A stretch of 39,009 nt of DNA from Solidesulfovibrio fructosivorans JJ] (lineage in GTDB: Bacteria; Desulfobacterota; Desulfovibrionia; Desulfovibrionales; Desulfovibrionaceae). The notes under the pieces are model-generated. The model ran no database searches. It saw only the letters and a program-made list of their open reading frames with translations, and was not told the DNA's origin. Both the position numbers and the translations under genes were made by a program. Of the stretch, positions 24,227 through 38,973 are shown one piece after another (within the stretch, counting starts at the first letter, position 1; every line of letters begins with the position of its first letter). Where the stretch lies: positions 1 through 39,009 of the forward strand of contig NZ_AECZ01000037.1 in assembly GCF_000179555.1 (NCBI RefSeq). Reading direction: 5' to 3'.

Positions 24227-24384
24227 GGCCTCAATCCTTGTTGCCGGGAGCGACAAGCTACCCTTTTTCGACCGCCCCGCAAAGCCGCCGGCCCCCCATG
24301 GATCGGTCGAGAAGGGTTAGCAAGCCCCATTCCAAACTTAACCCACTTATTTCATTGAATCGGCTATACCCGCCGGGACACGCA

Positions 24385-24516: not shown

Positions 24517-24533
24517 TTGGCCCGCAGGTTGCT
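24517..24533 (+). promoter_or_regulatory. Sigma-54 (RpoN) promoter -24/-12
   Basis: TTGGCCCGCAGGTTGCT fits the consensus TTGGCACG-N4-TTGCT with one mismatch. GG (24519-24520) and GC (24531-24532) are separated by exactly 10 nt. The predicted start is near 24544, only about 11 nt before the UspA ATG at 24555. That leaves AAGGAAGG (24536-24543) outside the transcript and a short leader with GAG. The sequence fit is strong, the short leader is odd. Confidence 0.75.
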
Positions 24534-24554
24534 GCAAGGAAGGCGAGAACCGCC

Positions 24555-24995
24555 ATGGAACATATACTCGTTTGCATGACGCCCCGGCATGGGGCCTTTG
24601 GAGCGCTGGGGCGGGCCGTGGCCCTGGCCCGGCGCATCCCGGCCAAGGTGTCCGTGCTTTTCGTCACGGCTCCGCCCGAGGGACAGGCAACCCCGCCGCT
24701 GGCCGAGGTGGAGGCCCGGCGGCAGTTGCGCCTGCTCGTCGAACGGGCCCGGTCCGAGGGCGTCGCCATAGAGTGGTTCGTGGCCGAGGGGATATTCGAG
24801 GATGAGGTGATCCGATTCGCCAAGGACCGCAAGGTCACGCTGTTGGTGGCGGAAACCGCCGACGCGGAGGGGAGGCAGTCGGAGCGGGAAACACAGTCCC
24901 TGCGCCAGATCATGCACCGGGTCTCATGCCGGGTGGAGCTCGTCAGCCCGCGCAAGGACGCAACGGCAATGCAACCAAAAGGAAAGGCGACATGA
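24555..24995 (+). CDS. Universal stress protein (UspA family)
   Basis: The 146-aa protein starts with the UspA strand MEHILVCMTPRHG, continues through LALARRIPAKVSVLFV, and has IEWFVAEG and VTLLVAETADA strands with a final HRVSCRVELV strand. The ATP-binding G-x2-G-x9-G(S/T) motif is not evident, so it may be a non-ATP-binding member. ATG 24555 is chosen; an in-frame ATG at 24495 would lie upstream of the predicted sigma-54 start. It is the first gene of the run, and its stop overlaps the permease ATG (ATGA). In other bacteria UspA proteins next to transporters can regulate them. Confidence 0.82.
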   Translation: MEHILVCMTPRHGAFGALGRAVALARRIPAKVSVLFVTAPPEGQATPPLAEVEARRQLRLLVERARSEGVAIEWFVAEGIFEDEVIRFAKDRKVTLLVAETADAEGRQSERETQSLRQIMHRVSCRVELVSPRKDATAMQPKGKAT

Positions 24996-25930
24996 GCATT
25001 CCCATGACCATGTACCTGCCCATCGCCGGGAATTCGGTGAACATCCTGGCCGTACTCGGCCTGGGTGGGGGTGTGGGGCTTCTCTCGGGCATTTTCGGCG
25101 TCGGCGGGGGCTTCCTGATGACGCCGCTTCTGATGATGATGGGCATTCCGCCCACCGTGGCCGCGGCTTCGGACTCCAACCAGATCGTGGGCGCTTCCAC
25201 CTCGGGCACGCTGATCCACCTGCGGCTCGGCAACGTGGACGTCAAGATGGGCCTGCTGCTTCTCATCGGCGGCGTCGTCGGCGGCACGCTGGGCGTCCAG
25301 CTGATCAAGGTCCTGCGGGCCATGGGCAACGCCGACTTTCTCATCAGCATCACCTACGTGCTCATGCTCGGCAGCGTGGGCTCCTACATGTTCATCGAGT
25401 CCATCACCTCCATGCGCAAGGCCAAGAATCCGTCGCAAAAGCCGGCCGCGCCCAAAAAGCCCTCCGGCTACGCCCGGATGATGGCCAGCCTGCCCTTTCA
25501 GATGGAATTTCCCCGCTCGGGCGTGCGCATGTCGCTGATCATGCCCCTGTTTTTGGGCGGCCTGGTCGGCGTGCTGTCCGCCATCATGGGCGTCGGCGGC
25601 GGCTTCATCATGGTTCCGGTCATGGTCTACATGCTGCGCATGCCCATGCACGTGGTCGTGGGCACGAGCCTGTTCCAGGTGCTTTTCACCTGCTTAAACG
25701 TCACCATCATGCAGGCCTGGACCAACCACACCGTGGACTTCGTCCTGGCGCTGATTCTTCTGATCGGCTCGGCGCTCGGCGCCCAGATCGGCGCCCGCAT
25801 CGGCCGCAAGCTCAAGGGCGACCAGCTCAAGGTCTACCTGGCCGGCATCGTGCTGCTGGTGATGTTCAAGATGCTCTACGAACTGCTGGCCCGCCCCGAT
25901 GTGCTGCTGGCGGCCATTGGAGGACACTAG
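24992..25930 (+). CDS. TauE/SafE-family permease
   Basis: The 312-aa membrane protein has about eight hydrophobic segments and the two internal repeats of the family: GLLSGIFGVGGGFLMTP (29-45) and GVLSAIMGVGGGFIMVP (193-209). A basic cytoplasmic loop (MRKAKNPSQKPAAPKKPS, 141-158) separates the halves. Family members export sulfite, sulfoacetate or related organosulfur anions or import such ions; the substrate here is not shown by the sequence. In a sulfate reducer sulfite or sulfonate is plausible. It is coupled to uspA by a 4-nt overlap and followed after 1 nt by a TIGR02186-type gene, a pairing known from other Proteobacteria. Confidence 0.9.
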   Translation: MSIPMTMYLPIAGNSVNILAVLGLGGGVGLLSGIFGVGGGFLMTPLLMMMGIPPTVAAASDSNQIVGASTSGTLIHLRLGNVDVKMGLLLLIGGVVGGTLGVQLIKVLRAMGNADFLISITYVLMLGSVGSYMFIESITSMRKAKNPSQKPAAPKKPSGYARMMASLPFQMEFPRSGVRMSLIMPLFLGGLVGVLSAIMGVGGGFIMVPVMVYMLRMPMHVVVGTSLFQVLFTCLNVTIMQAWTNHTVDFVLALILLIGSALGAQIGARIGRKLKGDQLKVYLAGIVLLVMFKMLYELLARPDVLLAAIGGH

Positions 25931-25931
25931 C

Positions 25932-26684
25932 ATGCGCCGCGTACTTCTCGTCCTTACCCTGTGCGCTCTTCTGGTCCCGGCCACGGCCTTCGCCGTCGAG
26001 CCCCCGGCGGTTACGGTCACGCCCGCGGCCATCCGCATCGGCGCGCTCTATGACGGCATCGCCCTGACGGTCACGGGCAAGGCCCCGGCGGGCGCGCAAG
26101 TGGCCGTGCGCCTGTCCGGCGAACCCGACACCTTCCACATGAAGCAGAAGGGCAAGGCGCTTGGCGTGCTGTGGATGAACCTCGCCAAGGTGACCTTCAC
26201 CGGCGCGCCCAAGGTGTTTCTCATCGCCGCCTCGGCCGGCCTGCCGGAAGCAAGCCTGGACCATCTGGGCATCCCCGGGCTGGCCGAGCGCATCACCGTG
26301 GACGCCACCTCCCCGGACAAGGCCGGCCTCATCAAGGAATTCCTGCATTACCAGCGCAGCGAAAAACTGTATAAGGACCATGCCGGCACGGTCACCTTCG
26401 GCCCGGAAGCCGACGGCATGCGGCCCTTTACCGCCGTGCTCCACGTGCCCTCGCGCCTGTCCCCCGGCACCTACTCCGTGGAGGCCTTCGCCGTGAAGGA
26501 CAAAGCCGAGACGGCGCTCGGCGAGACGGACGTGACCGCCTCCTTCGTGGGCGTTCCGGCATTCATGGCCAACATGGCCTTCAACCACGGGCTGCTCTTC
26601 GGCATCATGGCCTCGATCATCGCCATCATCGGCGGGTTCGTCATCGGCCAGCTGTGCAGCGGCTCCAAGAGCGGGGCGCACTAA
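25932..26684 (+). CDS. TIGR02186-type periplasmic/membrane protein
   Basis: The 250-aa protein has a signal peptide (1-22, cleaved near AFAVE), a periplasmic beta-rich part with VTVTPAAIRIGALYDGIALT (about 28-47), and the family-like KQKGKALGVLWMNLAKVTF. A single C-terminal membrane segment lies at about 220-240 (FGIMASIIAIIGGFVIG). TIGR02186/Alph_Pro_TM proteins are commonly encoded beside TauE/SafE permeases and their function is unknown; a periplasmic partner of the permease is likely. GGAGGA sits 8 nt before ATG 25932. The next gene begins 30 nt later, one of the few real gaps in the run. Confidence 0.82.
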   Translation: MRRVLLVLTLCALLVPATAFAVEPPAVTVTPAAIRIGALYDGIALTVTGKAPAGAQVAVRLSGEPDTFHMKQKGKALGVLWMNLAKVTFTGAPKVFLIAASAGLPEASLDHLGIPGLAERITVDATSPDKAGLIKEFLHYQRSEKLYKDHAGTVTFGPEADGMRPFTAVLHVPSRLSPGTYSVEAFAVKDKAETALGETDVTASFVGVPAFMANMAFNHGLLFGIMASIIAIIGGFVIGQLCSGSKSGAH

Positions 26685-26714
26685 AAAGGCCCCGCGAAAA
26701 AAGGCGAAACGGCC

Positions 26715-29291
26715 ATGGGCGTGTTAAGCGGTATCCGCGACGCGGTATGCTTCTGGCGGCGGGGCAAGGCCCCGGTTCCCTTCGTGGTGCTCTTCAAGAA
26801 ATTCAAGAGCATCCTCGAGCGCAACAACCGCATCCTCACGCTCATGGCCGACATGGCCGACAAACTGGGCGGCGAATACGTCTTCGACCGCCGCTACATC
26901 GAATCCGCCTGCGAGGAACTCTCCGACCAGGTCTTCAAGCTCGTCTCCGACCTGTCCATCCTCGACCAGGGCAAAAACTTCGAACTTTTCGCCGCCTTCG
27001 AGCGCATCCGCCAGGAAATCCAGGACGAGCTCGCCGGCCGGCACCGCTTCCCGGACACGCCCCCCACCCTGCCCCTGTCCGACCTTCGCGCGGACATGGC
27101 CGAGGCCGTGGGCGGCAAGTTCGCCATGCTCGGGGAGCTCAAAAACAAGCTTTCCCTGCCCGTGCCCGACGGCTTCGTCGTCACCACCGGCGCGTTCGCC
27201 GATTTCATGGCCAAAAACAAGCTGCCGGAATTCATCCGGGAGCAGGCCAAGCTCCTTGACCTTGACGAGGAAAAAAACATCCGGGGCGTGTCCTGGGCCG
27301 TCACCGCCCATATCCTTTCGGCCAGCATTCCCCGCGGCTTGGCCCGCAGCCTGGCCGCATCCCTGGATGCCCTGGCCGAACGCCTGGGCCGCGCGCCAGA
27401 GGCCCTGGCCCTGCGCAGCAGCGCCTGGGACGAGGACGGCGAGACCACTTTCGCCGGCCAGTACGAGAGCGTCATCGGCGTGGCTCCCACGGAAATCCAC
27501 ACCGCCTTCAAGAAGGTCGTGGCCAGCCTCTATTCCCCGGAAGCCTGGCTGTACCGCCGCCGCCGGGGATTCAAGGAGCACGAGGCGGTCATGGCCGTGG
27601 GCTGCCAGGTCATGATCGACTCCCGTGTCAGCGGCGCGCTCTATACCTACGCGCCCATGACCGAAAAGGACGAAGGCGTCTTCGTCAGCGCCGCCTGGGG
27701 CCAGTGCGCGCCCGTGGTCGGCGGCGAGATCGAGACCGACACCTTCCTGCTGCAACGCCATTCCCCCTTTGCCGCCGAGTCCAAGGACATCGCGCAAAAG
27801 ACTCGGCGGATGGTGCTGACCCCGGGCGGCGGCGCGGATTTCGAGTCCGTGCCCGAGGACATGGCCGGGGTTTCGTGCCTGAGCGAAGCGGAACTGAGCC
27901 TTCTCGGCGAGGCGGCGCTCACCCTGGAGAAATATTTCAAGCGGCCCCAGGACGTGGAATGGACCTTCGACGCCGACGGCCGGCTCTACCTCCTGCAAAG
28001 CCGGGCCCTGGTCTTTTCCGGCCGGCCGGAAAAACGCACCGGGGCCATCGACGCGGCCACCAGCCAGGCCGAGGCCGTCTTTTCCGGGCGCGGCGACGTG
28101 GTCCAGCGCGGCGTGGCCATGGGCAAGGTGCAGGTGGTCCAAAACGAGGAGGACCTCGACGACTTCCCCTTCGGGGCCATCCTCGTCTCGCGCCACACCT
28201 CGCCGCGCTATTCGCGCATCATGTCCCGGGCCCAGGGGATCCTGACCGACATCGGCTCCCCGGCCGGGCACATGGCCACCGTGGCCCGGGAATTCCGCGT
28301 GCCCACCATCGTCGGCTGCGGCGTGGCCACGGAGCTGCTCAAAACCGGCGACGAGATCACCGTGGACGCCACGCAAAACGTGGTCTACCGGGGACTCATC
28401 AAGGAACTGCGCTATTTCGAGCTGACCGAGGAGGACGTCTACGAGGACTCCTACGAATACCGGCTGCTGCGCCGGCTGCTCAAAAAGATCACGCCCCTGG
28501 CCCTGGTCGATCCCCACTCCCGGGACTTCGCCCCGGCCTCCTGCCGCACGTTCCACGACATCACGCGGTTTATTCACGAAAAATCCGTGGCCGAACTGAT
28601 CGAACTGAGCGAATCCGGCCAGGGCCTGCTCGACGCCGCCGCCGCCCGGCTCAAGACCGCCCTGCCCTTAAACCTTTTCATCATCGACCTCGACGGCGAG
28701 GCGCGCGGCGGCATGGGCGAGATCGAGCCCGCCGCCCTGCGCTCCCTGCCGCTTTCGTCCTTGCTCCAGGGACTCGACGATTCCGGCATGTGGAGCACCG
28801 ATCCCGTGCCCGTGGACATGGGCAGCTTCATGGCGAGCCTCACGCGCACCTACGGCCCCCGGGACGGGGCCACGGCCAAGCTCGGACGCAACCTGGCCGT
28901 GGTGTCCGAGGAATACATGAACCTGAACCTGCACCTGGGCTACCACTTCGTGCTCGTCGACGCCTACGTCGGCGACGTGCCGGCCGACAACAGCCTGTAC
29001 TTCCGCTTTCTCGGCGGCGTGACGGACTTTCGCCGGAGGGCCCGGCGCGCGGGCTGCATCGGCAAGATCCTGGAACGCTCGGATTTTCGCGTGGAGCTGC
29101 ACGGCGACCTGGTGGTCGGCCGCATCAAGTCCCTTGACAAGGAAGCCATGCGGGCCAAACTGCGCCTGCTCGGCGGCCTGGTCGGGTTTACGCGCCAGCT
29201 CGACGTGCGCATGAGCCGCGAAGGCGACGCGCACTGCTTTGCCGAAGAATTCCTGGCCGCCATCAAACCGGTGATGGAGGATACCAAATGA
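26715..29291 (+). CDS. PEP synthase-like phosphotransferase 1 (ATP-grasp + phospho-His domain)
   Basis: The 858-aa protein has: an N-terminal helical region (28-105, FKKFKSILERNN...GGEYVFDRRYI); a PPDK/PpsA-type ATP-grasp domain (about 128-435) with VGGKFAMLGEL, RSSAWDEDGETTFAGQY and DVEWTFDADGRLYLLQSRA; a mobile phospho-histidine domain with H519 in GSPAGHMATVARE; and a C-terminal domain (about 605-850) with CRTFHD, YMNLNLHLGYHF, DAYVGD and GDLVVGR. The PEP/pyruvate TIM barrel of PEP synthase is missing, so it should autophosphorylate His519 from ATP but pass the phosphate elsewhere. It overlaps the following receiver gene as ATGA, making that receiver a candidate partner. Confidence 0.85.
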   Translation: MGVLSGIRDAVCFWRRGKAPVPFVVLFKKFKSILERNNRILTLMADMADKLGGEYVFDRRYIESACEELSDQVFKLVSDLSILDQGKNFELFAAFERIRQEIQDELAGRHRFPDTPPTLPLSDLRADMAEAVGGKFAMLGELKNKLSLPVPDGFVVTTGAFADFMAKNKLPEFIREQAKLLDLDEEKNIRGVSWAVTAHILSASIPRGLARSLAASLDALAERLGRAPEALALRSSAWDEDGETTFAGQYESVIGVAPTEIHTAFKKVVASLYSPEAWLYRRRRGFKEHEAVMAVGCQVMIDSRVSGALYTYAPMTEKDEGVFVSAAWGQCAPVVGGEIETDTFLLQRHSPFAAESKDIAQKTRRMVLTPGGGADFESVPEDMAGVSCLSEAELSLLGEAALTLEKYFKRPQDVEWTFDADGRLYLLQSRALVFSGRPEKRTGAIDAATSQAEAVFSGRGDVVQRGVAMGKVQVVQNEEDLDDFPFGAILVSRHTSPRYSRIMSRAQGILTDIGSPAGHMATVAREFRVPTIVGCGVATELLKTGDEITVDATQNVVYRGLIKELRYFELTEEDVYEDSYEYRLLRRLLKKITPLALVDPHSRDFAPASCRTFHDITRFIHEKSVAELIELSESGQGLLDAAAARLKTALPLNLFIIDLDGEARGGMGEIEPAALRSLPLSSLLQGLDDSGMWSTDPVPVDMGSFMASLTRTYGPRDGATAKLGRNLAVVSEEYMNLNLHLGYHFVLVDAYVGDVPADNSLYFRFLGGVTDFRRRARRAGCIGKILERSDFRVELHGDLVVGRIKSLDKEAMRAKLRLLGGLVGFTRQLDVRMSREGDAHCFAEEFLAAIKPVMEDTK

Positions 29292-29704
29292 CCGACGCCA
29301 ACGACGCCGCGGCCGCCAAGAAACGCCGCATCCTCATCCTCGACGACGAACCCATCGTGGTCAAACGCTTGAAACCCGCCTTCCAGAAGGCCGGCTACGA
29401 CGTGGAGACCTTCACCGACAGCGACGCCGCCCTGGCGCGGTTCACCGAGTCCCCGGCCGACATCGTCATCACGGACCTCAAGATGGACGGACTCGACGGC
29501 ATGGGCTTCCTGGAAAAAGCCAAGGCCCTTTCGCCCGCCGTAGGCTGCATCGTCATCACCGGCTTCGCCACCCTGGAGACGGCCAAGGAGTCCTTCCACA
29601 AGGGGGCCTTCGACTTCGTGGCCAAGCCGTTCAAACTGGCCGACATCCTGGACGTGGTCAGGCGCCTCGAAACCACCCTGCCGGGCGCGCGTCATGCCGA
29701 CTGA
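29288..29704 (+). CDS. Stand-alone response-regulator receiver
   Basis: The 138-aa CheY-like protein has the acidic pair at 19-20 (ILDDEP), phospho-acceptor Asp63 in DIVITDLKMDGLDG, the switch Thr in CIVITGFAT and the Lys in FVAKPFKLADI. There is no output domain, so it should act through protein contacts or as a phosphate relay. Its ATG overlaps the end of PEP-synthase-like gene 1 by 4 nt and its 3' end overlaps PEP-synthase-like gene 2 by 11 nt, so its dose is tied to both. Its kinase may be either histidine kinase of the locus. Confidence 0.92.
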   Translation: MTDANDAAAAKKRRILILDDEPIVVKRLKPAFQKAGYDVETFTDSDAALARFTESPADIVITDLKMDGLDGMGFLEKAKALSPAVGCIVITGFATLETAKESFHKGAFDFVAKPFKLADILDVVRRLETTLPGARHAD

Positions 29705-32009
29705 ATACGCCCCCCCGGGCAACGGCCCGGCCGGGGCGGATCCGAGCCGCACCGCGCGCTCGCTTTTCTCCAAATTCCGGTCGCTTCTGGAATCCAACAC
29801 CGCCGCCCTGGCCAAGATGGCGGAGATGGAACGCATGCTCGGCGGCGAATACATCTTCGACCGCAGCTTTCTGGACAAGGCCGCCCGGGAAGTGGCGGAG
29901 CTGACCCACCGGACCGTCTATGCCCTAAACGCCATGACCGGAAACGCCCACGTGGCCCTTTACGACCGCTACATGGCCGTTAACGCCGCCGTGGAGGATA
30001 TCCTGGCCGGGCGGCCGCCGAGCGGCGACGAGGAGCCGGTGCGCGGGCTTGCCGGGTTGCGCCTGGAGGACCGGCACAAGGTCGGCTTCGGCCCGGCGGC
30101 CCTGGGCGAGCTTTCCGGGCATCTGGGCCTGCCCGTGCCGTGGGGCCTGGCCCTGACCGCCGCCGCCTTTGACGAGACGGGCCTGACCGGCGCGGCCGGG
30201 CAGTCGCTCGCCCGGGCCCTGGCGAAGCGCGGCGACAAGGACGCCCCGGCGGACGTCGCGGTCTCCATCGAAGCCGCTTCCGGCGAGCGCCTCGGCTTCT
30301 GGCGCGGCGCGGCCACGCCCGACGCCGTCATCCCGGCCCTGGGCAGAGAAATGCGAAAGGCCCGGCAGCACGCGCCGCAGGAACAGCCCACGGCCCTGAT
30401 CCTGGCCGAAACGCCGGCGGTCATGGCCGGACAGGTCCGCACCCTGGACGCCGCCCCGGACGGCGGGGAATTTCTGGTCATCGAGGCCGCCCCGGCCGAA
30501 TCCCCGGACGCCCCGGACGTCTTTTACCTGGAGCGGGCCCACCCCTTTGCCGTGCGCCGCTCGCGCCTTTCCCCCAAAGCCCTGGACGCGCCCCTGCCCG
30601 ATGGCGAAAAGCCCTTGTCCCCGGCCTCAAACGGCCACCTGCGCGGCACGGCCCTGCTTCCCTTCGACGCGGCCGCCGCCCTGGCCGGCCTGGCGCTCGC
30701 CGCCGAGCGGCTCCTCGGCGGCCCGCTTCGCCTCGATTTTTTCCGCGACGCCGGGGGCGCGTTTCATTTCACCCGGGCGGCCATGCGGGCCTGCCAGAAC
30801 TGCGGCGAGACGGCCACCCCGGAGGGCGAACTGATTCTTCGCGGCGGCGAGGCCGCCTGCCTGGGACGCGGCAGCGGCGCGGTCATCCACGTCACGGACC
30901 GCACCGTGCCGACGGATTTTCCCTTCGGGGCCGTGGCCGTGACCCGATCCGCCTCGCCGGTCCTGGCCCCGGTGCTGCGCCGGGCCGGAGCCATGGTGGC
31001 CGAGGTGGGCGACGCGGCCGGGCATCTGGCCGCCGTGGCCCGCGAATTTCGCACACCGGCCCTTTTCGGCCTGCCCGGGGCGCTTGCCGCCCTGCCCGAG
31101 GGCCTGGTCGTCACCGTGGACGCCGAGATGGGCGAGGTGCGCAAGGGGGCCAGCCCCGGCCGCGTCGCCACGGAGGCCGGGCTTAACCCGGACGACCCCG
31201 AATACCTGACCCTGCGGCGGCTTCTGCGCCGCATCGCCGGGCTCAACCTGACCGATCCCGACGCGCCGGGTTTCACCGAGGAAGGCTGCCGCACCTTCCA
31301 CGACCTCATCCATTTTTCCCACGAAAAGGCCGTGACCGCCCTGGCCGAGATGCGCCTGGCCGGGGTGTCGCAGTCCCTGGCCAAGCCGCTGGCCCTGCCC
31401 GTGCCGCTTTTTTTGCGCGTGCTCGACATCGGCGGCGGGCTCACCCCCGGCGTCGAGGGGATCGATTCGGTCCGCAGCCGGCCGCTTCGCGCTTTCCTTA
31501 ACGGCGTCGTCTCCCCGGGCATGTGGGACCAGGCTCCGGCCCGGGTGGGCCTGCGAGAAATTCTCGGCGGCATGGACCGCACCATGGCCGCCATGACGGG
31601 CATGACCGGCAAGTCCGGCGGCAATCTGGCCATCGCCGCCCGCTCGTATTGCAACATCAGCCTGCGCCTGGGCTACCACTTCAGCGTGGTGGACGCCTAC
31701 TGCGGCGACAATCCGGACAAGAACTCCGTCTACTTCCGGTTCGTGGGCGGCATGGCCCACGCCACGGCCCGGGCGGCCCGGGCGGCCTTTTTGCTGCGCC
31801 TGCTGTCCCGGTTCGATTTCAAGGCCTCGGCCGAAGGCGACCTGGTGGTGGCCCGGCTCAAGATGGTCGAGGCCGAGGTCGCGGAAGCGGCGCTGACCCT
31901 GCTCGGCCGGCTGACCGCCTTTACCCGCCAGCGCGACGTGGGGCTTTCCGGCCCGGACGACGTGGACGCGCTGGAAGCCGATTTCGAAGCCGCCGGGAGA
32001 AGCGCGTGA
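29694..32009 (+). CDS. PEP synthase-like paralogue 2 with degenerate ATP-grasp
   Basis: The 771-aa protein repeats the layout of the first paralogue: N-terminal helices (FSKFRSLLESNT...LGGEYIFDRSFL, 25-60), an ATP-grasp remnant (about 115-365), a mobile domain with H444 in GDAAGHLAAVAREF, and the C-terminal domain with CRTFHD (532-537), YCNISLRLGYHF, DAYCGD, YFRFVGG and GDLVVAR. The GGK loop is reduced to VGFGPAALGEL, and the RSSA-x-ED block is gone, so ATP phosphorylation is unlikely. The phospho-His stays, suggesting a phosphate acceptor or scaffold role. Its stop shares one base with the next ATG (TGATG). It is not a random pseudogene: the frame is intact over its whole length. Confidence 0.8.
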   Translation: MPTEYAPPGNGPAGADPSRTARSLFSKFRSLLESNTAALAKMAEMERMLGGEYIFDRSFLDKAAREVAELTHRTVYALNAMTGNAHVALYDRYMAVNAAVEDILAGRPPSGDEEPVRGLAGLRLEDRHKVGFGPAALGELSGHLGLPVPWGLALTAAAFDETGLTGAAGQSLARALAKRGDKDAPADVAVSIEAASGERLGFWRGAATPDAVIPALGREMRKARQHAPQEQPTALILAETPAVMAGQVRTLDAAPDGGEFLVIEAAPAESPDAPDVFYLERAHPFAVRRSRLSPKALDAPLPDGEKPLSPASNGHLRGTALLPFDAAAALAGLALAAERLLGGPLRLDFFRDAGGAFHFTRAAMRACQNCGETATPEGELILRGGEAACLGRGSGAVIHVTDRTVPTDFPFGAVAVTRSASPVLAPVLRRAGAMVAEVGDAAGHLAAVAREFRTPALFGLPGALAALPEGLVVTVDAEMGEVRKGASPGRVATEAGLNPDDPEYLTLRRLLRRIAGLNLTDPDAPGFTEEGCRTFHDLIHFSHEKAVTALAEMRLAGVSQSLAKPLALPVPLFLRVLDIGGGLTPGVEGIDSVRSRPLRAFLNGVVSPGMWDQAPARVGLREILGGMDRTMAAMTGMTGKSGGNLAIAARSYCNISLRLGYHFSVVDAYCGDNPDKNSVYFRFVGGMAHATARAARAAFLLRLLSRFDFKASAEGDLVVARLKMVEAEVAEAALTLLGRLTAFTRQRDVGLSGPDDVDALEADFEAAGRSA

Positions 32010-34600
32010 TGTGGACTCCCTGGCGGGCGCTCAAGGACCGGCGCGAGGCCAGGCGGCGGGCCGCCCTGGACGCGCTCAAGGTGCGCTACCACACCTTCCG
32101 CATCCTGCTCGCCAACAACGAACGCGCCCTCGACCGGCTGGCCAGGGTCGAGGCGGCCCTGGAAACCGGGGCGTCCACAGCCGAGCTGACCGGCCTTGTG
32201 GAGGACTTGCAGGCCGTGACCTTCGAGCTGGTCGACGGGGTGAGCCGCCTGACCGACGGCGGGCATCAACTCCTCTACGCCCGGCAGTTGCGCCTGGAAG
32301 AGGCCCTTCGCGCCGCTCTCGAAACCATGGAGGAGACGGCCCGCCAGCCGTCGTGCCAGCCGCTCGGTCGCGACCTTGCCACCGAGCGCGTGGGCGGCAA
32401 GGCGGCAAGCCTGTCGCGACTTAGGCAAAACGGCTTTCCCGTGCCGGACGGATTCGCGGTCACGGCCCGAGCCTGCCGGGATTTTCTGCGCGAAAGCGGC
32501 CTCGAGGCGCGCATCCGCAAAATGCTCCACGCCGCCGGTTCCGAAGGCCCTGGTCTGGCCGAGGCCTGTGAAAAGGCCCGCGAGGCCGTCATGGCCGCGC
32601 CCCTTCCCGACTGGCTGCGCGAAGACCTGCGCCAGGCCGGGGAAAAGCTGGCCGCAAACGGCTCCGCCAGGCTGGCCGCCCGCAGCAGCGCGCTGACCGA
32701 AGACACGCTGGAGCACTCGTTCGCCGGCCAGTACGTCACCGTCCTCAACCTCACCCCCGACACACTGGAGCGCGGCTTCCTTGAGGTCATGGCCGGGGTC
32801 TTCGGCCAGCGGGCCGTGGCCTACCGCCTGCAGGCCGGACTTCCCGCCGCCGCCTGCGACATGGCCGTGCTCGTTCAGGAGATGGTGCCGGCCGTGGGCG
32901 CCGGCGTGCTCTTCACCCTGGACCCGGTGCGCCCCGCCTCCGGGCGCATGCTGGTCTCGGCCGTGCCCGGCCTCGGCATCCTGGCCGTGGACGGCGAGGC
33001 CCCGACCGATATTTTCCGCGTCTCCCGCGACGACCTCGCCGACGTGGCCGGCCGGCCGGCGACAAAGACCATCCGGGCCGTGCCCGATCCGGCCGGGGGC
33101 GTGCGCCGCGAGGCCGTGCCGGAAGACGAGCGGGAGCGACCGGTCATCCCGCCCGAGGTCCTCGCCCGGTTGTGCCGGCTGGGGCTGGCCTCCGAGGCCC
33201 TGGCTGGGGCTCCCCAGGACATGGAGTGGGCCGTGACCGCCTCGGGAGAGCTGCGCGTCCTCCAGTCCCGGCCGGTGCGCCTGACCGGGCAGGCCGGGGG
33301 CGCGGCACCCGCCACCTCCGGCAACGCCTATTTCCACGGCGGCATGGCCGCCTGTCCCGGCCGATGCCTGGGCCACACCCGCCATGTGCGCGGCCCGGAG
33401 GACCTCGACGCCCCCGTTTGCGGCCCGGTCATCGCCGTGCTCGCGGCGGCCACGCCCGAGGCGGCCCGGTTGCTCCCCTCCTGGCAGGGCGTGGTCGCGG
33501 CCGGGGGCAACCCCACCGATCACCTGTCCACCGTGGCCCGGGAACTGGACCGGCCCATGCTCACCCGGGCCGCCGGAGCCGTGAGCGCCATTCCGGACGG
33601 CGTGCCGGCGGTGCTGGACGCCACGGCCGGAGCGGTCCTTCCCGTGCCCGCCGCCGTGGGCGAGCTCTCCGACCTGCTCGCCGCGCCGCGCCCGGAAACG
33701 GCCAAGGCCCCGCGCGTGGCCCTGACGCCCGGCCGGGTCAGGGTGCGCGAACTGACGGTGCCCCTAAACCTCACCGACGCCTACGGCCCCACCTTTTCGG
33801 CCGTGGAATGCCAAAGCCTCCACGACATCATCCGCTTCGCCCACGAGGCGGCCATCCTGGCCCTGTTCGAGGCCGGGGACGAGCTTTTGGACGAGGCCTT
33901 TTCCCATGTGCGCATTCTGCGCGGCGACGCGCCCTTCGAGGTCATGGTCATCGACCTCGGCGGCGGCGTGCGCGAGGGAGCGACCGATCGATTCATCACC
34001 CCGGACGACGTGACGAGCGCCCCCCTGGCCGCCCTGTGGCAGGGGCTCAACGCCCAGGCGACGCCCTACGCCGCGCCGCCCTCGGGTCCCGGCGGCCGTG
34101 ACGTGGGTGGGGTCATGGGAAGAGGGATCACCGACGCGCGCGGCAAAAGGCCCGTGGGCGAACCCAACTACGCCCTGGCGGCGCGGGACTACGTCAACGT
34201 CAACGCCCGGGTGGAATTTCATTTCGCCATGATCGACGCCGTGTGCGGCCCGAGGGCGCGCGGCAATTACGCGCGGCTGCGGGTCAAGGGCGGCGGCGCG
34301 GCCACGCCGCTTCGCGAGCGCCGGGCGACCTGCCTGGCCGATATCCTGGGTGCGGCCGGATTTTACGTCGACAGGCGGGGTGACCTCGTCACCGCAAACC
34401 TGACCGACGTTTCCGGCGACGACGCCGCCAAGGGACTTGTGTTGCTCGGCCGCCTGCTGTCCTTTATGCGGCTTTTGGACGCGGCCATGACCGATGATGA
34501 CGCCCCGGCCCGAGCGGCCGCCGCCTTCTGGGCCCAGGCCGAGGAAACAGCCATACCCGCCGACACCCCGGCGCGGGAAGCAGCAAGAGAGGGGGCATGA
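32009..34600 (+). CDS. PEP synthase-like phosphotransferase 3
   Basis: The 863-aa protein has N-terminal helices (about 25-105, YHTFRILLANNERAL), an intact ATP-grasp domain (VGGKAASLSRL at 128-138, RSSALTEDTLEHSFAGQY at 225-242, DMEWAVTASGELRVLQSRP), a mobile domain with H505 in GGNPTDHLSTVAREL, and the C-terminal domain with CQSLHD (601-606), YVNVNARVEFHF and GDLVTAN. There is no PEP/pyruvate barrel. The C-terminal domain is the most diverged of the three: FHD becomes LHD, YHF becomes FHF, and DAY becomes DAV. ATG 32009 overlaps the previous stop by one base; GTG 32006 is an alternative. The 3' end overlaps the DUF202 gene as ATGA. Confidence 0.83.
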   Translation: MWTPWRALKDRREARRRAALDALKVRYHTFRILLANNERALDRLARVEAALETGASTAELTGLVEDLQAVTFELVDGVSRLTDGGHQLLYARQLRLEEALRAALETMEETARQPSCQPLGRDLATERVGGKAASLSRLRQNGFPVPDGFAVTARACRDFLRESGLEARIRKMLHAAGSEGPGLAEACEKAREAVMAAPLPDWLREDLRQAGEKLAANGSARLAARSSALTEDTLEHSFAGQYVTVLNLTPDTLERGFLEVMAGVFGQRAVAYRLQAGLPAAACDMAVLVQEMVPAVGAGVLFTLDPVRPASGRMLVSAVPGLGILAVDGEAPTDIFRVSRDDLADVAGRPATKTIRAVPDPAGGVRREAVPEDERERPVIPPEVLARLCRLGLASEALAGAPQDMEWAVTASGELRVLQSRPVRLTGQAGGAAPATSGNAYFHGGMAACPGRCLGHTRHVRGPEDLDAPVCGPVIAVLAAATPEAARLLPSWQGVVAAGGNPTDHLSTVARELDRPMLTRAAGAVSAIPDGVPAVLDATAGAVLPVPAAVGELSDLLAAPRPETAKAPRVALTPGRVRVRELTVPLNLTDAYGPTFSAVECQSLHDIIRFAHEAAILALFEAGDELLDEAFSHVRILRGDAPFEVMVIDLGGGVREGATDRFITPDDVTSAPLAALWQGLNAQATPYAAPPSGPGGRDVGGVMGRGITDARGKRPVGEPNYALAARDYVNVNARVEFHFAMIDAVCGPRARGNYARLRVKGGGAATPLRERRATCLADILGAAGFYVDRRGDLVTANLTDVSGDDAAKGLVLLGRLLSFMRLLDAAMTDDDAPARAAAAFWAQAEETAIPADTPAREAAREGA

Positions 34601-36105
34601 CCGACAGGATTTTCACGCCGGAGACCTTCGATCCGGCCGGTCCGGACGAAGATTTCGCCGTGCCCAAGGCCTTTCGCGGCCGGGGGGCGCTCGCCGCCAT
34701 GCGCGAAGGACTGTGGGTCCCGGTCGCAAGCGACGGCGACACGGCCGTCATCTGGGCCGCCCGCGTAAACGACGCCCTGGAGGCCACCGCCAAGGCGGCC
34801 CTCGGCGTGGCCGACGCGCGCCTCGTCGCGGCGGACCCGGCCATCGTGCGCCATATCCTCAACAACACCCTGGACGTGTGCCCCGGCTTTCCGCCCGAGG
34901 CATCCCGCACCGATCTGGCCAAGGTGCGCACCTATCTGGCGGCGCGCCGTTCGTTTCTGGCCGGGTTTCGCACCACCCTGGCCCGGGGCCGCACCGGGTT
35001 GGCCATGTTCCGCACGGGCATCGCCTTTTTGACCGTGGTCTTGGTGCTGCTGCGGGTCCTCGGCCTGGGTTACACCTTGCCGCTCGAGGCCATTATCCTG
35101 TGCGCCGGCATTTTTTTCATTGTCGACGGCGTCATCTGGTACCTGCCGGCCCGACGCGCCTCCCACCGGGGCATGCCCGATCCCGTTCCCCTGCCCGATC
35201 CGGAGCTTGGCAACACCGGCATTCTGGCCGTGTCCGCCGATCCGCTCTGGCCGTGCTTCCGCTGGCTGCCGGCCGTGCCCGGGGCCAGGGCCCTTCGCGC
35301 CGCCTGGGGCCTGCTCTCGCCCACGGCCCGCCGCCGGTTTCTGGCCATGGACCGCACAAGCCTGGCCCTGGAGCGCACCACGCTGGCCGAACTGCGTTCG
35401 GTCATGGCCTGCTCCCGCACCGGTCTGGCCCTTGGGCGCACCGGCATCGGCGTCTCCGGCGTCGGCATCGCCATGATCCGCCAGTTTCACCACGGCCCCT
35501 GGGACGTGGCCAGCTTCGGCCTTATCGGCGTGGGCACGATCATGGCCCTGGAAGGGCTCGCCTGGTACCTGCCGGCCAGACGGGCCGGGCGCATGTGCCA
35601 GGACGCCGTCTGCCGGGCCGCCGCCTGCCCGAGTCCCCGCACCATGGCTTCGCCCGAGGCCGCGCCGCCCCCGAACCCGGAGACGCCCCCCCCCTCCTGG
35701 CCGGAGGCCGCGCCGGGCGTGCTCGGGTCCACCGGGCTGGCGCTGACGCGCACCACCCTGGCCGAGGAACGAAACGTGTTGGCGAGGCTGCGCACCCAGA
35801 TGGCCCGGGGCCGCACCGGACTTTCGCTGATCCGCACCGGCAACAACGCCGTGGCCGTCGGCCTGGGCCTGCTCGCCTGGTTCGGCACGGGTTCGACCGG
35901 CTGGACCATCTTCAACCTCGTGCTGATTGCCGGCGGCGTCATGCTGCTTACCGACGGCCTGCGCGCCACCCTGGCGGCCAGACGCGCCAGGAAGGCCACG
36001 AACGTGTGCACGGCGGACTTCGAACTGGCCGTACCGGACTACACCATGCCCGAAGAAACCTGGGGCCGGGCCAGCGCCGGATTGGGAGGGGACAATGTCG
36101 CCTGA
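34597..36105 (+). CDS. Membrane protein with three DUF202 units and a GspE-N-like start
   Basis: The 502-aa protein begins with a soluble part (1-100, GLWVPVASDGDTAVIWAARV...LGVADARLVAADPAIVRHIL) resembling the N-terminal domain of GspE/MshE secretion ATPases. Three DUF202-type units follow at about 105-187, 246-330 and 376-465. Each has a heptad of Arg-Thr repeats (for instance FRTTLARGRTGLAMFRTG) leading into two membrane helices and ending LPARR- or LAARR-like. Two Pro-rich linkers separate them. DUF202 function is unknown. The gene overlaps its neighbours by 4 nt upstream and 11 nt downstream. It is probably the membrane platform of the locus; this role is inferred. Confidence 0.8.
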   Translation: MTDRIFTPETFDPAGPDEDFAVPKAFRGRGALAAMREGLWVPVASDGDTAVIWAARVNDALEATAKAALGVADARLVAADPAIVRHILNNTLDVCPGFPPEASRTDLAKVRTYLAARRSFLAGFRTTLARGRTGLAMFRTGIAFLTVVLVLLRVLGLGYTLPLEAIILCAGIFFIVDGVIWYLPARRASHRGMPDPVPLPDPELGNTGILAVSADPLWPCFRWLPAVPGARALRAAWGLLSPTARRRFLAMDRTSLALERTTLAELRSVMACSRTGLALGRTGIGVSGVGIAMIRQFHHGPWDVASFGLIGVGTIMALEGLAWYLPARRAGRMCQDAVCRAAACPSPRTMASPEAAPPPNPETPPPSWPEAAPGVLGSTGLALTRTTLAEERNVLARLRTQMARGRTGLSLIRTGNNAVAVGLGLLAWFGTGSTGWTIFNLVLIAGGVMLLTDGLRATLAARRARKATNVCTADFELAVPDYTMPEETWGRASAGLGGDNVA

Positions 36106-37144
36106 TGCCGCCACCTCCCTCGCTTTCGACGAACGCCTGCGCATTCCGCCGCTGCTTCTGGCCCGGGTCCCGGCCGAAGCCTTCGCCAGGGCCGACTGGC
36201 TGCCGGTCGCCCTTTGCGACGACAACGCCGTGGTCGTGGCCGCGACGAGCCCGGACGACGCCGCCATGCGCGAAGCGGCCGCAACCGCCTTTCCCGAATA
36301 CGCCCTGCGCTTCGTGCCGGCCGCCCCGCTCGACCTGCGCCGGCTGGCCGCCGACTTCGCCCCGTCCGTGACCGGCGCGCCGGTCGGCGTCGTGCGCACC
36401 AATCTGGCCTACTGGCGCAACACCATGGCCCACTGGCGCACGCGCCTGGCCTGCTGGCGCACGGACATGGCCACGGGCCGCACCTGGCTTAACGTCATGC
36501 GCTTCGGCCTCGGGCTCACGGCCCTTGGCAACACGCTCTTGCGCTCGGCCAAAACGCCCGGGCAGACGGCCCTCGACGTCGCCGGACTGGCCATCGGCCT
36601 GATCCTGGCCGCCTTTGCCGTGCGGGCCTACCTGCGCCTTCGCCTGTCGCGGCACCGCCTGCCCGGCATCCAGACCCTGGTCGAGGTCTCGGCCGCCGCG
36701 CTCCAGTTTCTGGAGGAATACCACTTCATCGAGGAGCCCGGCCGGCCACGTCCGGTTTCCAAGCACACCATGCTGGCGCGCCTCGGCGACATGCTCGAAA
36801 ACCACGCCACCATCCTCGAAATCGCCTCCGGCGCGCCGGAACGCATCCATCTGGCCCGGGAACGCAACGTCCTGGCCGCCCAGCGCACGGTCTGCGCCTG
36901 CTACCGTACCATCGCCGCCCGGGCCCGCACCGGCCTGGCCTTCATCCGCACCGGCGTGGCCATCCTGGGCCTCGGGCTCGGCTTACTGCGCTATTTTGCG
37001 ACCGGCGCCCTGTCCATCGTGGATTGGCTGCTGGTCGTCGCCGGCGTGGCCATGATCGTCGACGGATTGCTCTGGTACTGGCCCGTGCGCAAGGAACCGG
37101 TGCGCACGCCCCGGTGCATGGACCCCGAAGGGGACGCGGCATGA
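36095..37144 (+). CDS. Membrane protein with two DUF202-type units
   Basis: The 349-aa protein has a soluble N-terminal part (1-90, LARVPAEAFARADWLPVALC...DDNAVVVAATSPDD) that resembles the GspE/MshE N-terminal domain, then a first DUF202-like unit (about 97-185, VRTNLAYWRNTMAHWRTRLA and two helices). A linker with a possible helical region (195-250) follows, then a second unit (about 252-333, AAQRTVCACYRT...ARTGLAFIRTGVAI) ending WPVRKE. GGGAGGGG at 3 nt supports ATG 36095, inside the previous gene. Its stop overlaps the kinase ATG by 4 nt. It is a paralogue of the preceding gene. Function unknown. Confidence 0.8.
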   Translation: MSPDAATSLAFDERLRIPPLLLARVPAEAFARADWLPVALCDDNAVVVAATSPDDAAMREAAATAFPEYALRFVPAAPLDLRRLAADFAPSVTGAPVGVVRTNLAYWRNTMAHWRTRLACWRTDMATGRTWLNVMRFGLGLTALGNTLLRSAKTPGQTALDVAGLAIGLILAAFAVRAYLRLRLSRHRLPGIQTLVEVSAAALQFLEEYHFIEEPGRPRPVSKHTMLARLGDMLENHATILEIASGAPERIHLARERNVLAAQRTVCACYRTIAARARTGLAFIRTGVAILGLGLGLLRYFATGALSIVDWLLVVAGVAMIVDGLLWYWPVRKEPVRTPRCMDPEGDAA

Positions 37145-38559
37145 AAATCAAGACCAAGCTAATCGTCGGCAGTTGCGTGAGCCTCGCGCTCATCCTCGTC
37201 CTGGCCCTGCTGGCCCAAAACGACATGAACCGGGTGGTGGACAAGCTGCGCTTCGTGGAAGTCCAGGACGACCTCAACGCCGATTTCCTGGAGATGCGGC
37301 TGTCGGAAAAAAACCTGTTTCTCTTCAAGGACAAGGGCGCGCTGCGGGAGATCGCGAGCAAGATCGAGGAGACCCGCGACACCCTGGCCAAATCCCGCGA
37401 CCGCATCGTGCGCGGGGCGGGCGAAGGCAACTACCTGGCCCTGCGACGCCGCCTGGACGCCTACGCCGCCGCCGTGGACAAGGCCGCCGCCAGCGGCAAT
37501 GCCGGCCCGGAAACGGAACAGTCCATGCGCGAAGCCGGCCGGGCCCTGCGGGAATTCTCCACCGCCCTGGTCAGCCGCGAACGGGAGCAGGTGAGCGAGA
37601 TCATCGCCCTGTCCCGGCGCACCATGACCGTGTCCCTGGCCGCCGTGGTCTGCACCGCCGTGCTGGCCGCGCCGCTTTTATTCCGCAAGGTGCTGCTTTC
37701 CCTGGCTAAGGTCGAGCGGCTGGCCGGGGCCATCGCCGAGGGCAAGTTCGAGAGCATCGAAGAGCCCCACAGCAAGGACGAACTCGCCTCGGTCATCCGG
37801 GCCGTCAACAGCATGTCGCAGCGCCTGAGCTCCCGCGAGGCCGAGATCCTGCAATCGAAAAAACTCGCCTCTCTCGGCACCCTGACCGCCGGCGTGGCCC
37901 ACGAGATCACCAACCCCGTCAACAACATCTCCATGATGGCCGAGACCTTCGAGACCCTGGACGAGGACCTGTCCCCGGCCGACCGCAAGGACATGATGCG
38001 GCAGATCCAGGAGGAATGCGGCCGCATCCACGGCATCGTCACCAACCTGCTCGACTTCTCCAAGCCCAAGACGGCCAGCATGCGCCAGATATGCCTCAAC
38101 GACCTCGTGCAGGGCACGCTGCCGCTGGTGCGCAACATGCTTCACGTCTCCAACATCGACCTGCGCCTGGACCTCGCCCCGGACTCGCCCATGGTCAAGG
38201 CCGACGTGTCGCAAATGCACCAGGTGCTCATCAACTGCATCACCAACGCCATCCAGTCCATGAGCCCGGGCGGCGGCCTGCGCATCGCCACCCGCGCCGA
38301 CGACGGCACGGCCCGCATCGTGGTGTCCGATACCGGCAAAGGCATCCCGCCCGACGTCCTGCCCCATATCTTCGATCCGTTCTTCAGCACCAAAGGCACC
38401 GAAGGCACCGGGCTCGGGCTCTCGGTCAGCTACGGCATCGTCAAAAACCACCAGGGACGGCTGCGGGTGGAAAGCACGGTCGGCGCCGGTACCACCTGCT
38501 TCATCGACCTGCCGGCCCTGATCCCCACGGAGGAATCCCATGCAAGCGCAACCGCCTAG
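37141..38559 (+). CDS. Membrane sensor histidine kinase (HAMP), second of the locus
   Basis: The 472-aa kinase has TM1 (about 7-25), a helical periplasmic sensor region (26-160) with LEMRLSEKNLFLFKD at 50-64, TM2 (about 163-181), HAMP (182-236), phospho-acceptor His254 in GVAHEITNPVNN, and an ATPase domain with NCITNAIQSMSPGG, DTGKGIP and GTGLGLSVSYG. Its sensor motif matches that of the kinase at 22784-24226, so the two may sense related signals. ATG 37141 overlaps the previous stop (ATGA). The receiver that follows overlaps its end by 20 nt and is its likely partner. Confidence 0.93.
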   Translation: MKIKTKLIVGSCVSLALILVLALLAQNDMNRVVDKLRFVEVQDDLNADFLEMRLSEKNLFLFKDKGALREIASKIEETRDTLAKSRDRIVRGAGEGNYLALRRRLDAYAAAVDKAAASGNAGPETEQSMREAGRALREFSTALVSREREQVSEIIALSRRTMTVSLAAVVCTAVLAAPLLFRKVLLSLAKVERLAGAIAEGKFESIEEPHSKDELASVIRAVNSMSQRLSSREAEILQSKKLASLGTLTAGVAHEITNPVNNISMMAETFETLDEDLSPADRKDMMRQIQEECGRIHGIVTNLLDFSKPKTASMRQICLNDLVQGTLPLVRNMLHVSNIDLRLDLAPDSPMVKADVSQMHQVLINCITNAIQSMSPGGGLRIATRADDGTARIVVSDTGKGIPPDVLPHIFDPFFSTKGTEGTGLGLSVSYGIVKNHQGRLRVESTVGAGTTCFIDLPALIPTEESHASATA

Positions 38560-38920
38560 AATCATGATCATCGACGACGAGAAAGTGGTCGGCGATATGC
38601 TGCGCATCCACCTGACCAAGCACGGTTGCATAGTGGAAACGTTCCTGTCCGCCGCCCCCGCCCTGGCCAGGCTCGAGGAAACGCCCTTCGACCTGATCGT
38701 CACGGACTTCAAGATGAAAGGCATGGACGGCATGGAACTGCTCAAGACCGTCAAAAGCCTCTATCCCGATATCCAGGTCATCATGATCACCGCCTTCGCC
38801 CACCTCGATACCGCCATCGAAGCCTTCCGGGGACAGGTCCACGACTTCTTCCCCAAGCCCTTCAAAATCAAAGACCTCATCGAATCCATCCAACGCGCCC
38901 TGGGCCGTCCCTTGGCGTAG
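38540..38920 (+). CDS. Stand-alone response-regulator receiver, last gene of the run
   Basis: The 126-aa receiver has the acidic pair in IIDDEK (11-13), phospho-acceptor Asp56 in DLIVTDFKMKGMDG, the switch Thr in VIMITAFAH and Lys in FFPKPFKIKDL. No output domain. It begins 20 nt inside the kinase gene, the longest overlap of the locus, which argues for coupled synthesis as a cognate pair. A perfect 22-bp hairpin follows 8 nt after its stop. Confidence 0.92.
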   Translation: MQAQPPRIMIIDDEKVVGDMLRIHLTKHGCIVETFLSAAPALARLEETPFDLIVTDFKMKGMDGMELLKTVKSLYPDIQVIMITAFAHLDTAIEAFRGQVHDFFPKPFKIKDLIESIQRALGRPLA

Positions 38921-38927
38921 GCAGGAA

Positions 38928-38973
38928 CCGGGGGAGGGGACCTTTTTTTGCAAAAAAAGGTCCCCTCCCCCGG
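38928..38973 (+). terminator. Perfect 22-bp hairpin at the end of the eleven-gene run
   Basis: Arm 38928-38949 (GGGGGAGGGGACC then seven T) is exactly complementary to 38952-38973, loop GC. It is flanked by GGCAGGAA and GGACCCCCACCCTCC followed by a run of A, as in the inverse-oriented element at 16508-16549. It begins 8 nt after the last stop. The U/A tract is at the apex, so termination may be factor-assisted. Confidence 0.7.

What the first reader, a model, noticed from the sequence alone, without database searches (positions are those of the whole stretch)
24517..38973. Eleven-gene candidate signalling/transport system with three PEP-synthase-like proteins
UspA, TauE/SafE, TIGR02186, three PPDK-like proteins, two receivers, two multi-DUF202 membrane proteins and a histidine kinase lie in one direction. 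Most junctions overlap by 1-20 nt, under one sigma-54 promoter, closed by a strong hairpin. Overlaps this consistent across unlike families point to one functional unit. The combination suggests ATP-driven histidine phosphorylation linked to two-component relays and membrane platforms controlling an anion exporter. I do not know of a described pathway with this make-up; function is inferred.
Basis: partly seen in the sequence, partly recalled or inferred. Interest (0 to 1): 0.88.

Follow-up and report, generated by a model that had tools for sequence, protein, structure and literature searches.

The report
Dikinase-linked anion permease of sulfate reducers
This stretch of a sulfate-reducing bacterium's genome holds a conserved set of genes that seems to join a membrane channel for a sulfur-type salt to unusual ATP-using proteins and a sensor circuit, a kind of system seen only in sulfate reducers among the genomes compared and hardly studied so far.

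Summary
In detail: eleven same-strand genes behind a sigma-54 site (24518-24533), nine of ten junctions overlapping or 1 nt apart, closed by a 21-bp hairpin.

In 98 distinct TauE-anchored loci the order TauE-TIGR02186-dikinase-receiver is nearly invariant. The DUF202a-DUF202b-kinase-receiver module lies beside this core in five arrangements, so the two belong together.

The three 'PEP synthases' are not PEP synthases: all share a C-terminal ~270-aa domain without Pfam match in place of the PEP/pyruvate barrel, and the middle one lacks a recognisable ATP-grasp. Of 198 phylum genomes 74 have the domain, all 74 with dsrA. Non-core relatives often sit beside TSUP permeases and lone receivers.

A cluster of similar make-up is the Desulfovibrio 'nitrate cluster': insertions in the permease, receiver or dikinase gene remove nitrate inhibition (PMC4001038).

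Best reading: a receiver-switched dikinase controls a sulfur-oxyanion TSUP permease, probably inward. Class and linkage rest on comparison; the mechanism is inferred.

The parts
21444..22787 (-). NtrC-type response regulator / sigma-54 activator (receiver, Sigma54_activat with GAFTGA, HTH_8)
   Evidence: Pfam; GAFTGA and coordinates
22784..24226 (-). Divergent histidine kinase (HAMP-HisKA-HATPase); 4-nt overlap with the activator
24319..24334 (-). Sigma-54-type site TGGAATGGGGCTTGCT facing the divergent kinase
   Evidence: a - strand site is only about twice as frequent as in shuffles over the loci (20 of 106 against 11)
24385..24401 (.). Palindrome TGTTCC-N5-GGAACA between the two sites, possible activator site; same form in L038, L078, L079, L099
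   Evidence: 5 of 108 loci; role inferred
24518..24533 (+). Sigma-54-type promoter site TGGCCCGCAGGTTGCT
   Evidence: conserved upstream, (65 of 96 against 8.0 expected)
24555..24995 (+). Universal stress protein (Usp)
   Evidence: PF00582; the ATG at 24555 lies downstream of the promoter site
24992..25930 (+). TSUP permease (TauE/SafE family), 312 aa, 73-88% identical to 13 diverse orthologs
   Evidence: PF01925
25932..26684 (+). TIGR02186 / Alph_Pro_TM protein: N-terminal helix, beta-sandwich part, C-terminal helix; likely outer-face partner of the permease (inferred)
   Evidence: PF09608; model pLDDT 92; Foldseek; beside TauE in 97 of 98 loci
26715..29291 (+). PpsA: N-terminal helices, ATP-grasp, swivel with His519, C-terminal ~270-aa domain (CT)
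29288..29704 (+). RR1: single-domain receiver with the usual Asp, Thr and Lys positions conserved
   Evidence: PF00072; (82 sequences)
29694..32009 (+). PpsB: no recognisable ATP-grasp, swivel His (GHLAAVARE) and CT domain kept
32006..34600 (+). PpsC: ATP-grasp, swivel His (DHLSTVARE), CT domain; GTG start 32006 or ATG 32009
34597..36105 (+). DUF202 protein a
   Evidence: PF02656; 4 of 198 phylum genomes at E <= 1e-25
36095..37144 (+). DUF202 protein b with an MshEN-like N-terminal domain
   Evidence: PF02656, PF05157
37141..38559 (+). Second histidine kinase (HAMP-HisKA-HATPase)
38540..38920 (+). RR2: second single-domain receiver
38928..38973 (.). Terminator-like hairpin, 21-bp stem with A/T tracts, readable from both strands

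Best explanation
The locus encodes a regulated sulfur-oxyanion permease system of dissimilatory sulfate reducers. A histidine kinase and an NtrC-type sigma-54 activator (divergent pair) sense a signal and switch on the operon. TauE with TIGR02186 forms the permease, with an outer-face partner. RR1, phosphorylated by a kinase of the locus, binds the CT-dikinases. PpsA and PpsC take a phosphoryl group from ATP onto the swivel histidine; PpsB, without a recognisable ATP-grasp, is a phosphohistidine partner or scaffold. The CT domain replaces the PEP/pyruvate barrel and is the receiving or sensing module, through which the complex opens the permease (or traps its cargo) according to ATP supply and the receiver's state. 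That fits organisms that must spend ATP on sulfate before they gain any. The DUF202a-DUF202b-kinase-RR2 module is an accessory membrane part with a second sensor. The cargo is probably a sulfur oxyanion such as thiosulfate or sulfite, more likely inward. Shown by comparison: gene set, order, promoter site, conserved motifs, restriction to dsrA genomes in the phylum sample, link to TSUP and receivers. Inferred: phosphotransfer, its target, gating, cargo, direction.
For: Core order conserved: TIGR02186 in 97 of 98 distinct loci, dikinase in 90, receiver in 84; the others end before the place is reached, except L123, where the receiver follows TIGR02186 and a dikinase match (36%) lies beyond the DUF202 module. 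A sigma-54 activator lies within 5.5 kb upstream in 60 of 98; 10 lack it with 4.5 kb or more of sequence, 28 cannot be judged. Sigma-54 sites in 65 of 96 against 8.0 expected. TauE ortholog (E <= 1e-90) in 34 of 198 phylum genomes, all 34 with dsrA (102 of 198). CT domain in 74 of 198, all 74 with dsrA, 0 of 96 without; a profile finds none in 79 of those 96, with G000 as positive control. Non-core CT-dikinase loci: TSUP in 17 of 33 (one of them, L175, a core-like TauE), sigma-54 activator in 13 of 33, against 0 of 20 control loci each; a lone receiver abuts 20 of 44 CT-dikinases in these loci against 8% of random intervals. ATP-grasp motifs and swivel His conserved in PpsA and PpsC. One relative is fused to a rhodanese domain. 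Genetics of a related cluster: insertions in permease, small protein, receiver or dikinase gene give the same growth with and without 100 mM nitrate; mutants in D. alaskensis were mildly sick on thiosulfate, unpublished data quoted there (PMC4001038). L200 has that cluster's gene order, and its dikinase carries the CT domain.
Against: No biochemistry. The permease of the published cluster is probably only a distant TSUP relative (27% over 115 aa for the L200 stand-in), and the window's genes lack its PhnD-like protein and phosphatase, so cargo and direction may differ. DvH sequences were not at hand; the link runs through gene order and annotation. The published mutants are insertions: those upstream could act by polarity on the dikinase gene, and the sections read report complementation only for rex. 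The DvH kinase gene DVU0248 (annotated pseudogene) gave little or no growth advantage when tested alone, against the kinase-first chain; DVU0250 and DVU0245 were inconsistent between pool, single mutant and D. alaskensis. The dsrA association is not corrected for phylogeny, and 28 of 102 dsrA genomes lack the domain. Usp was found in only 3 and TIGR02186 in only 1 of the 33 non-core loci, so the core is one flavour of the class; 16 of 33 show no TSUP gene and 24 of 44 CT-dikinases no abutting lone receiver. TauE is named from sulfite export.
Confidence: 0.45

Rival explanations
1. The CT-dikinases are metabolic enzymes. The CT domain binds a small substrate, as the acceptor parts of rifampin phosphotransferase or phenylphosphate synthase do (recalled), and the permease merely moves substrate or product; the receivers regulate it.
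For: By sequence PpsA matches PEP synthases over residues ~108-567; Foldseek ranks PEP synthase, HpeI and rifampin phosphotransferase first. The CT domain has invariant His, Glu, Asp, Arg and Gly, as an active site would. Up to 12 copies in one genome (G190) suits several substrates.
Against: 20 of 44 non-core copies abut lone receivers and 17 of 33 loci hold TSUP genes; receiver and dikinase insertions share the permease phenotype in the related cluster, polarity aside. PpsB without ATP-grasp is hard to read as a stand-alone enzyme.
Confidence: 0.28
2. A stress-induced exporter: TauE/TIGR02186 expels sulfite or a toxic oxyanion, with Usp and the signalling proteins as the stress response.
For: Usp in 65 of 98 loci; TauE named from a sulfite exporter; a DvH cluster of Usp, PSE transporter, kinase and regulator matters in molybdate stress (PMC10102598, passages).
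Against: No Usp found in 32 of 98 loci whose contig reaches (tblastn); the authors of the related cluster's genetics argue for entry, not efflux.
Confidence: 0.17
3. Co-regulated neighbours without physical or functional coupling.
For: Tight junctions alone are common in bacteria.
Against: Near-invariant core in 98 distinct loci and linkage of the DUF202 module in five arrangements.
Confidence: 0.04

Closest known systems
Desulfovibrio 'nitrate cluster' DVU0251-DVU0245 / Dde_0597-0605 (PMC4001038)
   Same: TSUP permease, lone receiver, histidine kinase and ATP-grasp/swivel dikinase together; the dikinase of the look-alike locus L200 carries the same CT domain
   Different: Has a PhnD-like protein, a small membrane protein and a DSP-type phosphatase; no Usp, TIGR02186, DUF202 or second and third dikinase listed; distant permease in L200
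Phosphoenolpyruvate synthase / PPDK
   Same: ATP-grasp and swivel domain with catalytic His
   Different: No PEP/pyruvate barrel match; PEP_synth 298.9 (PpsA), 52.7 (PpsB), 202.1 (PpsC) bits against the cut-off 739.75; extra N-terminal helices and CT domain
Rifampin phosphotransferase; phenylphosphate synthase (the latter recalled)
   Same: Dikinase logic with a non-pyruvate acceptor; phenylphosphate synthase splits the parts over several proteins (recalled)
   Different: NCBIfam cut-offs not met; CT domain has no PDB sequence match; its fold was not searched on its own
DvH DVU0539-0545 (Usp + PSE transporter + kinase/sigma-54 regulator; PMC10102598, PMC3333781, passages)
   Same: Divergent kinase/regulator pair driving a Usp + anion-transporter operon
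   Different: PSE, not TSUP; no dikinase or lone receiver described in the passages seen

Membership tests
PEP synthase (pyruvate, water dikinase) | PPDK_N ATP-grasp with conserved motifs | tested here: met
   PpsA and PpsC; not PpsB, which has no PPDK_N match
PEP synthase (pyruvate, water dikinase) | Swivel domain with catalytic His | tested here: met
   PF00391 in all three, His conserved
PEP synthase (pyruvate, water dikinase) | C-terminal PEP/pyruvate-binding barrel and full-length equivalog score | tested here: not met
   No third Pfam domain; 298.9, 52.7 and 202.1 of 739.75 bits; PpsA C-terminus without PDB sequence match
Rifampin phosphotransferase | NCBIfam equivalog cut-off | tested here: not met
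   197.4 (PpsA), 26.9 (PpsB), 169.2 (PpsC) of 999 bits
TSUP / TauE-SafE permease | PF01925 over the curated cut-off, full length | tested here: met
   162.8 bits against 32.6
TSUP / TauE-SafE permease | Sulfite export | not testable with these tools
   Needs transport assays
TIGR02186 equivalog | NCBIfam cut-off | tested here: not met
   42.4 of 255.25 bits; Pfam Alph_Pro_TM is met with 113.4 against 24.5
Sigma-54-dependent two-component operon | Adjacent activator with GAFTGA and a -24/-12 site | tested here: met
Desulfovibrio nitrate cluster | TSUP + lone receiver + kinase + dikinase with CT domain | tested here: met
   CT domain in the L200 look-alike; not checked in DvH itself
Desulfovibrio nitrate cluster | PhnD-like protein and DSP phosphatase | tested here: not met
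   No such Pfam match among the eleven genes
Desulfovibrio nitrate cluster | Loss gives nitrate resistance | not testable with these tools
   Genetics needed

The most novel reading that the evidence does not exclude
A new principle of membrane transport control: an ATP-dependent dikinase with a new acceptor domain, switched by a lone receiver, gates (or energises by phosphoryl transfer) a TSUP anion permease. The dikinase class arose with dissimilatory sulfite reduction and ties oxyanion flux to the cell's ATP budget.
Probability: 0.28. Interest if true: 0.92.

Novelty: new variant of a known kind. Interest (0 to 1): 0.75.

Why it matters
It turns proteins annotated as 'PEP synthase' in sulfate reducers into a defined class with a C-terminal domain that has no Pfam or PDB sequence match, was found in no dsrA-less genome of the phylum sample, and is physically tied to anion permeases and receivers. 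It gives a concrete handle on how sulfate reducers move thiosulfate, sulfite or similar anions, a question left open in the papers seen, and on nitrate resistance in souring.

Tried and rejected
Single-sequence scan of genome contigs with PpsB found no relative; the second scan used the TauE alignment. My first sigma-54 scan used the wrong columns and is void; one search replaces it, and repeats it on distinct loci. My first receiver-adjacency control (4.5%) used a stricter rule for the random intervals than for the genes; one search uses one rule for both (8%). The VIA-align library was not available. Foldseek gives no aligned ranges and full-length TM-scores of at most 0.34, so whether the CT domain has a known fold is open. 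The viral fold search added nothing useful. Plasmids: no CT match. The guess that DVU1030-1033 was this locus found no support. The 'gap' between kinase and Usp or TauE in short-type loci is, where checked (L121, L123), the rest of the sigma-54 activator. True PEP synthesis rejected: no barrel, below the equivalog cut-off. Not done: CT domain outside Desulfobacterota other than the plasmid search, a phylogeny-corrected association test, profile search of the last 17 of 96 dsrA-less genomes, the first 21 kb of the window.
Full report
What is there. The window is contig C37 of a 4.67-Mb genome; among named records the closest TauE is in Solidesulfovibrio alcoholivorans and a Desulfovibrio MAG (85%). 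The eleven genes run from 24555 to 38920 on the + strand: Usp, TauE/TSUP, TIGR02186 (Pfam Alph_Pro_TM), PpsA, receiver RR1, PpsB, PpsC, DUF202a, DUF202b, histidine kinase, receiver RR2. Junctions in nt are -4, +1, +30, -4, -11, -4, -4, -11, -4, -20. A sigma-54-type site lies at 24518-24533 and a hairpin with a 21-bp stem at 38928-38973 (z -6.6). Upstream and divergent are a histidine kinase (22784-24226) and an NtrC-type activator with GAFTGA (21444-22787), with a perfect palindrome (24385-24401) in the intergenic region; the same form is found in 5 of 108 loci: window, L038, L078, L079, L099.

Is it conserved? Of 40 loci fetched around dikinase hits of the family search, 27 held the core. With the window these make 108 loci, 98 distinct by TauE protein. 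TIGR02186 follows TauE in 97 of 98, a PpsA-type dikinase in 90, RR1 in 84. The only locus that lacks one of these in its usual place although the contig reaches is L123: there the receiver follows TIGR02186 directly, and a dikinase match (36% to PpsA) lies beyond an inserted DUF202 module. Usp is in 65 of 98; 32 show none although the contig reaches (tblastn, so a very divergent Usp could be missed). PpsB is in 39, and 40 lack it although the contig reaches; PpsC is in 33. A sigma-54 activator lies upstream in 60 (38 tandem, 22 divergent); 10 lack it with room by the rule used, 28 cannot be judged. Sigma-54 sites occur on the + strand in 65 of 96 distinct loci against 8.0 expected in shuffles. 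The hits include records named Solidesulfovibrio, Desulfobulbus, Desulfobacter, Desulfosarcina, Desulforhabdus, Desulfomonile and Syntrophobacteraceae. Selection of the 80 was by TauE likeness, so the counts speak for this TauE subfamily, not for all TSUP genes.

The DUF202 half. The DUF202a subfamily is rare: 4 of 198 phylum genomes at E <= 1e-25, all four among the 34 that hold the TauE ortholog. The four-gene module DUF202a-DUF202b-kinase-RR2 lies beside the core in the window and its near relative L038, in L089 (evidently the same contig as L215, by length), L121, L123 and L214: downstream and overlapping, convergent, downstream with a gap, inserted between receiver and dikinase, and divergent. 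The fourth genome (G149) has the gene at a contig end, so linkage cannot be judged. Among the 108 loci only 4 have the module on the core's strand, so most core loci do without it. Five arrangements of the same two modules argue for a shared job rather than inheritance of one operon. DUF202 is the membrane part of the yeast VTC polyphosphate complex (recalled); I did not test that likeness.

The dikinases. PpsA and PpsC keep the ATP-grasp motifs and the swivel histidine over 83 and 28 distinct sequences; PpsB (33) keeps the histidine, while its ATP-grasp region is not conserved and has no PPDK_N match. That these motifs are the catalytic ones is recalled. None has a Pfam match for the PEP/pyruvate barrel or reaches the PEP synthase cut-off. 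Instead all three share a ~270-aa C-terminal domain, here called CT, with invariant F, H, H, E, D, P, G, H, G, G, R, G, R, D over 39 copies. It has no Pfam match, and the PpsA copy no PDB sequence match. In the AlphaFold model of PpsA (62 sequences, pLDDT 82, pTM 0.70) Foldseek ranks PEP synthase, HpeI, rifampin phosphotransferase and PPDK first; by sequence the PEP synthase match covers residues 108-567. The output gives no aligned ranges, so a known fold for the CT domain is neither shown nor excluded. The TIGR02186 model (pLDDT 92) has a beta-sandwich part and a C-terminal helix; Foldseek hits are largely Ig-like proteins with low TM-scores.

Who has it? In 198 genomes of the phylum dsrA is in 102, the TauE ortholog in 34 and the CT domain in 74. 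All 34 and all 74 are dsrA genomes (Fisher 7e-12 and 3e-31, not corrected for shared descent). A profile of the CT domain found nothing in the 28 dsrA genomes without a single-sequence match (no positive control inside that call) and nothing in 79 of the 96 dsrA-less genomes, with G000 as positive control. Other phyla were not tested, apart from the plasmid collection (no match).

The class beyond this locus. Thirty-three CT-dikinase loci outside the core (13 from the family search, 20 from the phylum list, two of them in G000; several from related genomes, so not independent) were compared with 20 arbitrary control loci: TSUP 17 against 0, sigma-54 activator 13 against 0, kinase 21 against 2, receiver 22 against 2 (Fisher values). 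One of the 17, L175, reaches a core-like TauE with TIGR02186 at its edge. Usp was found in 3 and TIGR02186 in 1 of the 33. Of 44 CT-dikinase frames in these loci, 20 have a lone-receiver-size frame within 300 bp (13 on the same strand) against 8.1% of random intervals; nine further loci, picked for frame length or other reasons and not at random, give 7 of 10. One relative is fused to a rhodanese. In L066 and L071 a CT-dikinase lies next to a large sigma-54 activator without receiver domain, and L066 and L069 hold a Pfam-confirmed TSUP gene.

What is known. Korte et al. 2014 (PMC4001038; I read the abstract, the Discussion, two Results sections and passages) found that D. vulgaris strains with insertions in DVU0251 (TauE-like), DVU0250, DVU0247 (360-bp receiver) or DVU0246 (PPDK-like) grew with the same kinetics with and without 100 mM nitrate; the listed D. 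[quoted passage not shown] The insertion in DVU0246 itself counts most, since upstream insertions may be polar and loss of the next gene, the phosphatase DVU0245, left cells sensitive (its D. alaskensis homolog scored as resistant). The DvH kinase DVU0248, annotated as a pseudogene, gave little or no advantage alone. The authors suggest a leaky thiosulfate transporter and quote, as unpublished, mild sickness on thiosulfate. [quoted passage not shown] I had no DvH DNA, but L200 shows the same order, TSUP - 187-aa protein - PhnD-like - kinase - receiver - dikinase - DSP phosphatase, and its dikinase carries the CT domain (E 4e-76). So the published cluster and the window are most likely two flavours of one class. 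Other passages: nine DvH sigma-54 operons encode TSUP or PSE transporters (PMC4641369); TSUP genes in all 44 sulfate reducers examined, function open (PMC5840216); a Usp-PSE-kinase-regulator cluster in molybdate stress (PMC10102598); the DVU0542 promoter activated by its regulator (PMC3333781). The listings of ten paper searches, none of them aimed at the CT domain as such, showed no description of this gene set beyond the nitrate cluster; the library holds only open-licence papers.

How it most likely works. The chain receiver -> CT-dikinase -> permease, with a kinase feeding the receiver, is the simplest reading that uses the receiver-dikinase pairing, the dikinase-TSUP linkage and the shared mutant phenotype. 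Receiver and dikinase would act on the permease after it is made, since transcription is already served by the separate sigma-54 activator. The dikinase's use of ATP would make it a fit sensor of energy charge in cells that pay ATP to activate sulfate. PpsB, without ATP-grasp but with the histidine, looks like a partner that receives rather than makes phosphohistidine. Each of these steps is inference. Cargo and direction are the weakest points: the related permease suggests inward movement of thiosulfate with leak of nitrate, the family name suggests outward sulfite.

Verdict.

Noticed in passing
L077:7824-11267: CT-dikinase relative with a C-terminal rhodanese domain (PF00581), a hint at sulfur chemistry.
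   Followed up: no
L066:11760-14339 and L071:11388-14081: Sigma-54 activators of 860 and 898 aa without receiver domain beside CT-dikinases.
   Followed up: partly
L082:14781-16649: Two further ORFs downstream of RR1 that look Usp-like by eye, before a second kinase.
   Followed up: no
G000:C23, C3, C2 (L176, L177, L006): Three more CT-domain copies in the window's own genome outside this contig.
   Followed up: partly
G165, G169, G222, G233, G260, G276, G286, G299, G308: dsrA matches that run over one in-frame stop, perhaps only at the gene's end; eight of these nine genomes lack the CT domain.
   Followed up: no
window 1-21000: Not examined beyond the ORF list, Rfam (none) and tRNA (none) scans.
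   Followed up: no
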